DNA from: Enterobacter kobei
Lineage (GTDB): Bacteria; Pseudomonadota; Gammaproteobacteria; Enterobacterales; Enterobacteriaceae
Direction of reading: 5' to 3'
Length of the DNA stretch: 64,000 nt
Assembly: GCF_001729765.1 (NCBI RefSeq)
Contig: NZ_CP017181.1
Location: 2,666,001 to 2,730,000 of the forward strand
Shown in pieces: positions 2,334 to 4,414 of this stretch. Below the pieces are notes generated by a model that worked only from the letters and a program-made list of their open reading frames with translations, was not told where the DNA came from and did not search any database. Within the stretch, counting starts at the first letter, position 1. The number at the start of each line of letters is the position of its first letter. The translations under genes and the position numbers were made by a program.

Positions 2334-2695
2334 TCAAATTCTCCTGATTTGTTCAAGTTTTGAACTTTTATGCAATAAATAACGCGTTGAGTATATCAGC
2401 CTCGCCCTGCAGTCCGGGTCTGAAAAGAACGCGTTGCCGATCAATTAGGACAAATACGCATGATTCTGGGCTGCGATAGTAGCACTCCCGAGAAAACAGA
2501 GGTAAAGCAATCTTAAAATTACGCTCCAGTTGCTTATTCCGTGGACAACATTAAGCGTAGCCTTCCCCCAGCCCCCCAAATTTGGCACTGCCATGAGGAA
2601 CAACGGTGACTAATTTGATTAAGATACGCCGTACCCAGTGTTCCAAGCGGTACACCGTTACTCACCTGAATATGGTGTTCACCCGTATTCAGTGA

Positions 2696-2703
2696 CGCAT
2701 TCA
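2696..2703. repeat. IS1 target-site duplication, left copy
   Basis: CGCATTCA here is repeated directly at 3472-3479 on the other side of IS1. The next base after both copies is G, so a 9-bp repeat sharing one IS base is an equally good reading. Confidence 0.92.
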
Positions 2704-2718
2704 GGTAATGACTCCAAC

Positions 2719-3222
2719 TTACTGATAGTGTTTTATGTTCAGATAATGCCCGATGACCTTGTCATGCAGCTCCACCGATTTTGAGAACGACAGTGACTTC
2801 CGTCCCAGCCTTGCCAGATGTTGTCTCAGATTCAGGTTATGCCGCTCAATTCGCTGAGTGTAACGCTTGCTGATTACGTGCAGCTTTCCCTTCAGGCGGG
2901 ATTCATACAGCGGCCAGCCATCCGTCATCCATACCACGACCTCAAAGGCCGACAGCAGGCTCAGAAGACGCTCCAGTGTGGCCAGAGTGCGTTCACCGAA
3001 GACGTGCGCCACAACCGTCCTCCGTATCCTGTCATACGCGTAAAACAGCCAGCGCTGACGTGATTTAGCACCGACGTAGCCCCACTGTTCGTCCATTTCA
3101 GCGCAGACAATCACATCACTGCCCGGCTGTATGCGCGAGGTTACCGACTGCGGCCTGAGTTTTTTAAGTGACGTAAAATCGTGTTGAGGCCAACGCCCAT
3201 AATGCGGGCGGTTGCCCGGCAT
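2719..3222 (-). CDS. insB: IS1 InsB / transposase C-terminal frame
   Basis: InsB is the second IS1 reading frame, 167 aa. It is normally joined to InsA by -1 frameshifting to give the active DDE transposase InsAB'. Catalytic-domain landmarks such as VVWMTDGWPLYESRLKGKL and the terminal YLNIKHYQ are intact. Alone it is not thought to be expressed efficiently. Confidence 0.94.
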   Translation of the reverse strand: MPGNRPHYGRWPQHDFTSLKKLRPQSVTSRIQPGSDVIVCAEMDEQWGYVGAKSRQRWLFYAYDRIRRTVVAHVFGERTLATLERLLSLLSAFEVVVWMTDGWPLYESRLKGKLHVISKRYTQRIERHNLNLRQHLARLGRKSLSFSKSVELHDKVIGHYLNIKHYQ

Positions 3223-3416
3223 CCAACACCATTCATGGCCATATCAATGATTTTCTGGTGTGTACCGGGCTGAGAGGCGGTGTAAGTGAACTGTAGCTGC
3301 CATGTTTTACGGCAGTGAGAGCAGAGATAGCGCTGATGTCCGGCAGTACTTTTACCGTTACGCACCACGCCTTCAGTAGCTGAGCAGGAGGGACAACTGA
3401 TGGAGATGGAAGCCAC
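3141..3416 (-). CDS. insA: IS1 InsA repressor / transposase N-terminal frame
   Basis: InsA (91 aa) binds the IS1 ends and represses the IS1 promoter. It also forms the N-terminal half of the InsAB' transposase. A zinc-finger-like part (CPSC ... CSHC, residues about 8-36) is followed by a helix-turn-helix (CRATARIMGVGLNTILRHL). The frameshift run lies within its 3' end and it overlaps insB. Confidence 0.94.
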   Translation of the reverse strand: MASISISCPSCSATEGVVRNGKSTAGHQRYLCSHCRKTWQLQFTYTASQPGTHQKIIDMAMNGVGCRATARIMGVGLNTILRHLKNSGRSR

Positions 3417-3471
3417 GGGAGCACCTCAAAAACACCATCGTACACTAAATCAGTAAGTTGGCACCATTACC

Positions 3472-3479
3472 CGCATTCA
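3472..3479. repeat. IS1 target-site duplication, right copy
   Basis: This is the second copy of CGCATTCA. Deleting IS1 plus one copy restores the rssB reading frame, which confirms it as the duplication. Confidence 0.92.
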
Positions 3480-4414
3480 GACCTGCTGAAACGAGGATAA
3501 GATTTTTTAAACCGCTATGGTAATAACCCACCAGCAGCGGGAACTGTCCCGGTAAATTGGCCTGACGAAAAAGCTGGTTTACTTGTTTGAGTAAACTGCC
3601 TAACTCAGGAAGCCGTTGTCCCTGATGCGATAACTGTTCCTGCAATAAACCGTTAAATAGCGCACGAAGTAACAACGCGGCTAATACGCCATTATCCCCT
3701 GCACGGGTTACGTCCAGAGAATAAAACGCGAGATCAGAGTCAGACAGTGGCGCAATATCCAGCACCAGCCCAGGCTGGTCAGCCGCCACCAGCTGGCGAT
3801 AATTTACGCGGCAGTGTGAAATAGTCTGCTGAACGGGTGGCTGAAGTTCTTGCAACAGTTTGGCTGCCGCAGGCGGATCACTTACCAGCGCGTCCCAGTC
3901 CTGGAAAAGACGTTCCTCTTCCTCAACGCGGGAATTAAACATATTCGGATAGAGGCACGCTAATACCGTTTCACGTAACCGGTTCAGATCTTTAACGGGT
4001 TTAAGCAGGATATCCTGGACGCCAAGGCGCAATGCTTTGGCGATATCCGCCATATTTTCTGTCGCAGAGATCACCAGAATGGGCATCTGGTCACCCTCGT
4101 TACGCAGATGTTCAACCAGTTTCAGTCCGTTCATGCGCGGCATCGCGATATCGCAAATCATCAGATCGGGCGCAATGCTGGTCATTTTTTCCAGCGCGTC
4201 GATGCCATCTTCAGCCAGTAACGTGTTTGCGCCCAGTGAGGATAACCATGAATCCAGTAGCGATCGGAAAACGGGCTCGTCTTCAACAATCAAAATGTGT
4301 TTTCCGGCCAATGGCTGCGTCATGGTTCCTCCCCTGGCTGATAGTTACTAAATAGTGGCATGCTATCGGTACTATCGCCTGTCAGATTTTGCTGAAGTAG
4401 TCAAAAAAAGGTGC

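What the first reader, a model, noticed from the sequence alone, without database searches (positions are those of the whole stretch)
2534..4323. IS1 truncates rssB, predicting stabilised RpoS
The sequence shows a complete 768-bp IS1 with an 8-bp target duplication inside rssB. Removing it restores a 337-codon frame. The protein keeps the receiver domain but loses the last 53 residues of the effector domain. RssB is the adaptor for RpoS degradation by ClpXP, so the strain should have high sigma-S in exponential phase. Perfect duplications and the intact transposase point to a recent event, perhaps selected in the host, in the environment or during laboratory storage.
Basis: partly seen in the sequence, partly recalled or inferred. 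Interest (0 to 1): 0.75.

Follow-up and report, generated by a model that had tools for sequence, protein, structure and literature searches.

The report
IS1 breaks rssB; rpoS broken too
A jumping element has cut the end off a gene that normally gets a stress-response master switch destroyed, but in this Enterobacter genome the switch gene itself also carries a premature stop, so the stress response is more likely disabled than over-active.

Summary
A complete 768-bp IS1 with an 8-bp target duplication sits in rssB; RssB is cut after residue 284 of 337 and gains 8 foreign residues. The organism is an Enterobacter. rssB is whole in 57 of 61 genus genomes, and this is the only well-assembled one with it broken. 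RssB is very probably inactive: the lost tail belongs to the effector-domain fold.

The predicted outcome, high sigma-S, does not follow. The same chromosome has an in-frame TAG at codon 251 of 330 in rpoS, separating sigma regions 1-3 from region 4. No amber-suppressor anticodon was seen at the 86 tRNA places found. In E. coli, rpoS is epistatic to rssB, and an rssB::IS1 strain sheds rpoS mutants in agar stabs within a week. This genome repeats that pair. A second IS1 marks the loss of about 17 kb including fnr, missing only here among 61 genomes.

Best reading: an RpoS-deficient strain, perhaps altered in storage. The order of the two hits and the storage origin are inferred.

The parts
2534..4323 (-). 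rssB, interrupted (337 codons without the insert)
2704..3471 (-). complete IS1, 768 bp, transposase read in the same direction as rssB
2696..2703 (.). target-site duplication CGCATTCA, copy 1
3472..3479 (.). target-site duplication CGCATTCA, copy 2
3141..3416 (-). insA, 91 aa
2719..3222 (-). insB, 167 aa
3445..4323 (-). truncated RssB ORF, 292 aa: 284 native residues plus 8 from IS1
2534..2703 (-). cut-off 3' remnant of rssB, including one copy of the duplication
4415..5359 (-). rssA, patatin-like, intact upstream neighbour (314 aa)
1425..2333 (-). galU, intact downstream neighbour (302 aa)

Best explanation
IS1 inserted at about codon 285 of rssB in an Enterobacter strain and left a 292-residue RssB that lacks the end of the effector domain and very probably cannot hand sigma-S to ClpXP. 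In this strain that has little or no output, because rpoS itself carries an amber stop at codon 251, giving at most a sigma-S fragment without region 4. The net state is RpoS-deficient, not RpoS-high. Shown: both lesions; no suppressor tRNA among those found; both genes whole in most relatives. Inferred: that the truncated RssB is dead, that the sigma-S fragment is inactive, and (less certain) that rssB was hit first and the rpoS nonsense mutation was then selected as relief from excess sigma-S, as in E. coli MC4100TF kept in stabs.
For: IS1 and target duplication; RssB cut at 284 of 337; end of RssB described as critical to its fold, and the C domain as binding sigma-S and ClpX (PMC7226468 passages); rpoS TAG at codon 251; region 4 falls on the far side of the stop; no CTA anticodon at 86 of 86 tRNA places found; rpoS open over the matched stretch in 56 of 61 and rssB whole in 57 of 61 genus genomes; rpoS epistatic to rssB in E. 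coli (PMC2229837 passages); 10 of 10 low-RpoS segregants of rssB::IS1 MC4100TF kept IS1 and carried rpoS lesions (PMC3240573 section 5 part 1).
Against: No protein or phenotype data. A sigma-S fragment with regions 1-3 may keep some activity. One chemostat isolate with an rssB change had lower, not higher, sigma-S (PMC3446313 passages), so rssB changes do not act in one direction only. The co-occurrence is weak statistically: 4 of 58 usable genomes have an rpoS lesion, so chance overlap is 0.07, and three genomes (G007, G033, G041) have rpoS lesions with rssB whole. An assembly error at the TAG cannot be excluded without reads.
Confidence: 0.85

Rival explanations
1. One reading: RssB is lost and active sigma-S is therefore stable and high in exponential phase.
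For: E. coli MC4100TF rssB::IS1 has high RpoS, and rssAB on a plasmid lowers it (PMC3240573 passages).
Against: rpoS of this genome has an in-frame TAG at codon 251, and no CTA anticodon was seen.
Confidence: 0.05
2. rpoS was lost first, or independently; rssB then had no sigma-S to control and the IS1 insertion was neutral, one of many in an IS1 burst.
For: rpoS is broken with rssB whole in 3 other genus genomes, G007, G033 and G041, so rpoS can go first; IS1 is at no fewer than 38 places.
Against: The precedent in E. coli runs rssB first, rpoS second. Nothing in one genome settles the order.
Confidence: 0.42
3. The truncated RssB keeps part of its function, for example its receiver domain soaks up an anti-adaptor or the fragment still binds sigma-S.
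For: The receiver domain is complete, and an isolated receiver domain binds IraD in E. coli (PMC4428439 passages).
Against: Sigma-S and ClpX binding lie mainly in the C domain, whose end is integral to the fold; neither isolated domain altered RssB-mediated turnover.
Confidence: 0.06

Closest known systems
E. coli MC4100TF rssB::IS1 and its low-RpoS segregants (PMC3240573; passages and section 5 part 1 seen)
   Same: IS1 in rssB together with an rpoS lesion in one genome.
   Different: There IS1 is at the 5' end of rssB and the rpoS lesions are frameshifts or I128N; here IS1 is near the 3' end and rpoS has a nonsense codon. Different genus, and the order here is unknown.
E. coli XL1-Blue (PMC11148124; passages seen)
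   Same: Its revised genotype lists both rssB and rpoS.
   Different: The nature of those alleles was not seen; a cloning strain.
IS1 insertion sequence
   Same: 768 bp, insA and insB, imperfect terminal repeats, short target duplication.
   Different: Nothing notable; identical to 13 other copies in the genome.

Membership tests
IS1 insertion sequence | About 768 bp with imperfect terminal inverted repeats | tested here: met
   768 bp; 20 of the first 23 end bases match
IS1 insertion sequence | insA and insB with IS1 domains | tested here: met
   PF03811, PF12759, PF03400
IS1 insertion sequence | Short target duplication (8-11 bp, range recalled) | tested here: met
   CGCATTCA on both sides
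RssB adaptor, working | Receiver domain | tested here: met
   PF00072, residues 10-119
RssB adaptor, working | Whole effector domain to residue 337 | tested here: not met
   NF007969 matched at 1-284 of 337 only
RpoS sigma factor, working | Regions 2, 3 and 4 in one chain | tested here: not met
   TAG at codon 251; regions 1.2-3 and region 4 in separate ORFs
MC4100TF-like rssB::IS1 high-RpoS state | rssB interrupted by IS1 with rpoS whole | tested here: not met
   rpoS has a TAG
MC4100TF-like rssB::IS1 high-RpoS state | Raised sigma-S protein | not testable with these tools
   needs an immunoblot

The most novel reading that the evidence does not exclude
The two lesions are a retuning rather than two nulls. 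rpoS is split near the region 3/region 4 boundary. The 3' piece is an open 76-aa ORF that begins with ATG as the fourth codon after the TAG, with AGGA seven bases upstream, so regions 1-3 and region 4 could be made as two chains from one message. Loss of RssB would keep the region 1-3 chain abundant enough to work at promoters that need little -35 contact: a natural two-piece or region-4-less sigma-S.
Probability: 0.04. Interest if true: 0.7.

Novelty: new member of a known kind. Interest (0 to 1): 0.4.

Why it matters
It shows why a broken regulator should be read together with its target: the window alone predicts high sigma-S, the genome predicts none. It extends to Enterobacter the rssB and rpoS instability known from stored E. 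coli, and with the loss of fnr it warns that this sequenced strain may be a poor proxy for its species in stress and anaerobic physiology. Of 58 usable Enterobacter genomes, 4 carry an rpoS lesion, in line with published concern that storage breaks rpoS (PMC3484664, abstract).

Tried and rejected
E. coli or Shigella as the source: rejected. The 5' rssB stretch has only 60-80% matches in E. coli (best rows 75.6%), against 91.3% over the locus to E. chuandaensis.

An independent IS1 in E. coli rssB (FDAARGOS_1301, top row): rejected. There IS1 lies between rssA and ychJ, and rssB is whole.

Amber suppression rescuing rpoS: no CTA anticodon among ARAGORN calls at the 86 Rfam tRNA places. The Rfam search scored 150 of 211 first-look candidates, and tRNAs it missed were not examined.

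IS1 copy number across the genus: not usable, as only 8 candidates per genome were scored; 23 of 61 genomes have a match.

Other truncated RssB proteins: the best 120 of 973 hits are listed and most are 337 aa. I read five shorter ones: P0015 (289 aa, on a 939-base contig) ends near the same place with a different tail, and may be a contig-end or frameshift artefact; none has the tail seen here. The database is clustered at 90%, so this cannot exclude the same fusion elsewhere.

Papers: searches for Enterobacter with rssB and rpoS terms listed none that I recognised, from titles and abstract starts only, as reporting this lesion (20 of 103 and 10 of 35 listed). Recalled fnr-region deletions in E. 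coli MG1655 stocks: no paper found in the listings.

Full report
What is there. A 768-bp IS1 lies at 2704-3471 inside rssB (2534-4323, minus strand), flanked by CGCATTCA at 2696-2703 and 3472-3479. insA and insB are open and hit their Pfam models. Without the element and one repeat the gene reads 337 codons, as in E. chuandaensis L009. With it, the ORF ends after 284 native residues plus GNGANLLI from IS1; the NCBIfam RssB model matches 1-284 of 337. The order rssA-rssB-galU is as in E. coli, and both neighbours have the same length as in L009.

Organism. The genome (G000) has 4,927,478 bases in 2 contigs, completeness 100, contamination 0.1. Over about 6.5 kb around the insertion, the nearest of the 80 fetched named loci is Enterobacter chuandaensis (91.3%), then a record named Lelliottia nimipressuralis (89.8%), E. 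vonholyi (89.6%) and E. sichuanensis (89.4%). The species is not fixed; the window's own record may have been left out of that collection.

Is the insertion unusual? RssB matches over residues 1-337 in 57 of 61 genus genomes. The other four are G000; G001 (78% complete, frameshifted in both rssB and rpoS); G043 (79% complete, residues 1-146 only); and G054 (86% complete, about 590 contigs, no match beyond a weak response-regulator hit). So G000 is the only well-assembled genome with rssB broken. IS1 is abundant here: 38 places (40 of 73 candidates scored, so a lower bound). Fourteen are identical over 768 bp, one is 95.4% identical, and 23 are 92.4-94.0% (three of these partial); 15 of 38 have 8-10 bp flanking repeats. 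Identical copies fit a recent burst of this IS1 but give no date.

Function of the truncated RssB. In E. coli the C domain is needed for contact with sigma-S and with the zinc-binding domain of ClpX. The authors state that the C-terminal sequence is critical to the fold, and describe a sandwich whose second sheet runs beta6-7-16-15-12-13 (PMC7226468, passages). By sequence order the lost residues 285-337 should hold the last strands; this is inference, as the structure job did not finish. Isolated domains did not alter RssB-mediated turnover (PMC4428439, passages). Loss of adaptor activity is therefore very likely but not shown. Against a one-way rule, one chemostat isolate with an rssB change had lowered sigma-S (PMC3446313, passages).

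Why sigma-S is not expected to be high. The only match over the RpoS family cut-off in G000 has one in-frame TAG: codon 251 of 330, at G000:C1:3807661-3807663 (sequence). The 5' piece carries regions 1.2, 2 and 3, and the 3' piece region 4. In the genus search rpoS is open over the matched stretch (family positions 5-285, so not the extreme N-terminus) in 56 of 61 genomes; the exceptions are G000, G001, G007, G033 and G041. G007, G033 and G041 have frame-breaking lesions in rpoS but whole rssB. The 6 relatives compared (of 10 fetched loci) differ from G000 at one to three residues besides the stop, which argues against a generally poor sequence there. ARAGORN covered the 86 tRNA places found by Rfam and gave no CTA anticodon. 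In E. coli an rssB rpoS double mutant behaves as rpoS (PMC2229837, passages). MC4100TF rssB::IS1 has high RpoS, and 10 of 10 low-RpoS segregants from stabs kept the IS1 and carried rpoS lesions (PMC3240573, passages and section 5 part 1). XL1-Blue is listed with both rssB and rpoS altered (PMC11148124, passages). A survey found 2% of its E. coli strains without functional RpoS, from mutations that arose in the laboratory (PMC3484664, outline with abstract and start of introduction).

History. The pair fits rssB first and rpoS second, but the reverse order or independence is nearly as likely. Excluding G001, G043 and G054, 4 of 58 genomes have an rpoS lesion, so the chance that the one rssB-broken genome is among them is 0.07. 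A storage origin is a guess from precedent.

A third lesion. An IS1 without flanking repeats (L156; G000:C1:2112166-2112933) abuts a uspE gene whose match starts at model position 29 of 313. Its two flanks lie 17,355 bases apart in G020 and 17,718 in G009; in G016 only 84 bases of the right flank matched, 15,365 bases from the left one. In G000, 57 bases next to IS1 on the right had no match in G020. The G020 interval carries fnr, ogt and abgT by NCBIfam. G000 matches the two ends of that interval; inside it only chemoreceptor-like and two plasmid-borne stretches gave matches, none over fnr (40 of 109 candidates scored). A direct Fnr search found it in 60 of 61 genus genomes, missing only in G000. 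This looks like an IS1-adjacent deletion.

Verdict. Observation confirmed; loss of RssB function likely; the phenotype prediction is most likely wrong in sign. Known kind, new instance in Enterobacter. The moderate interest comes from the joint loss of RssB, sigma-S region 4 and Fnr, and from the split-sigma possibility, which I rate at 4%.

Noticed in passing
L109 (G000:C1:3805930-3809772), minus strand; stop at G000:C1:3807661-3807663: rpoS has an in-frame TAG at codon 251 of 330; a 76-aa ORF with region 4 starts at the fourth codon after it.
   Followed up: yes
L156 (G000:C1:2110666-2114433) against L218 (G020:C1:2140500-2159500): IS1 without flanking repeats at a cut uspE, in place of about 17 kb that holds fnr, ogt and abgT in G020; Fnr is missing only here among 61 genus genomes.
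   Followed up: yes
L162 (G000:C1:1490219-1493989): IS1 without flanking repeats lies between a type II secretion C-like piece and a GspG piece, which suggests the genes between were deleted.
   Followed up: no
L178 (G000:C1:2148192-2151961): IS1 with a 9-bp repeat cuts a type A chloramphenicol acetyltransferase-like gene. Described only.
   Followed up: no
L168, L172 and L177: IS1 copies border or cut a CSS-motif/EAL gene, an EAL gene and an ascorbate-type PTS IIC gene.
   Followed up: no
L207 (G007), L208 (G033), L209 (G041): Three other Enterobacter genomes have frame-breaking lesions in rpoS with rssB whole.
   Followed up: partly
L130:1425-1498: A tRNA-like gene with a two-base anticodon call in a Met-?-Thr-Gly cluster, not in the Rfam list.
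   Followed up: no
P0015: A 289-aa RssB on a 939-base metagenome contig ends near the same residue with another tail; it may be an artefact.
   Followed up: partly
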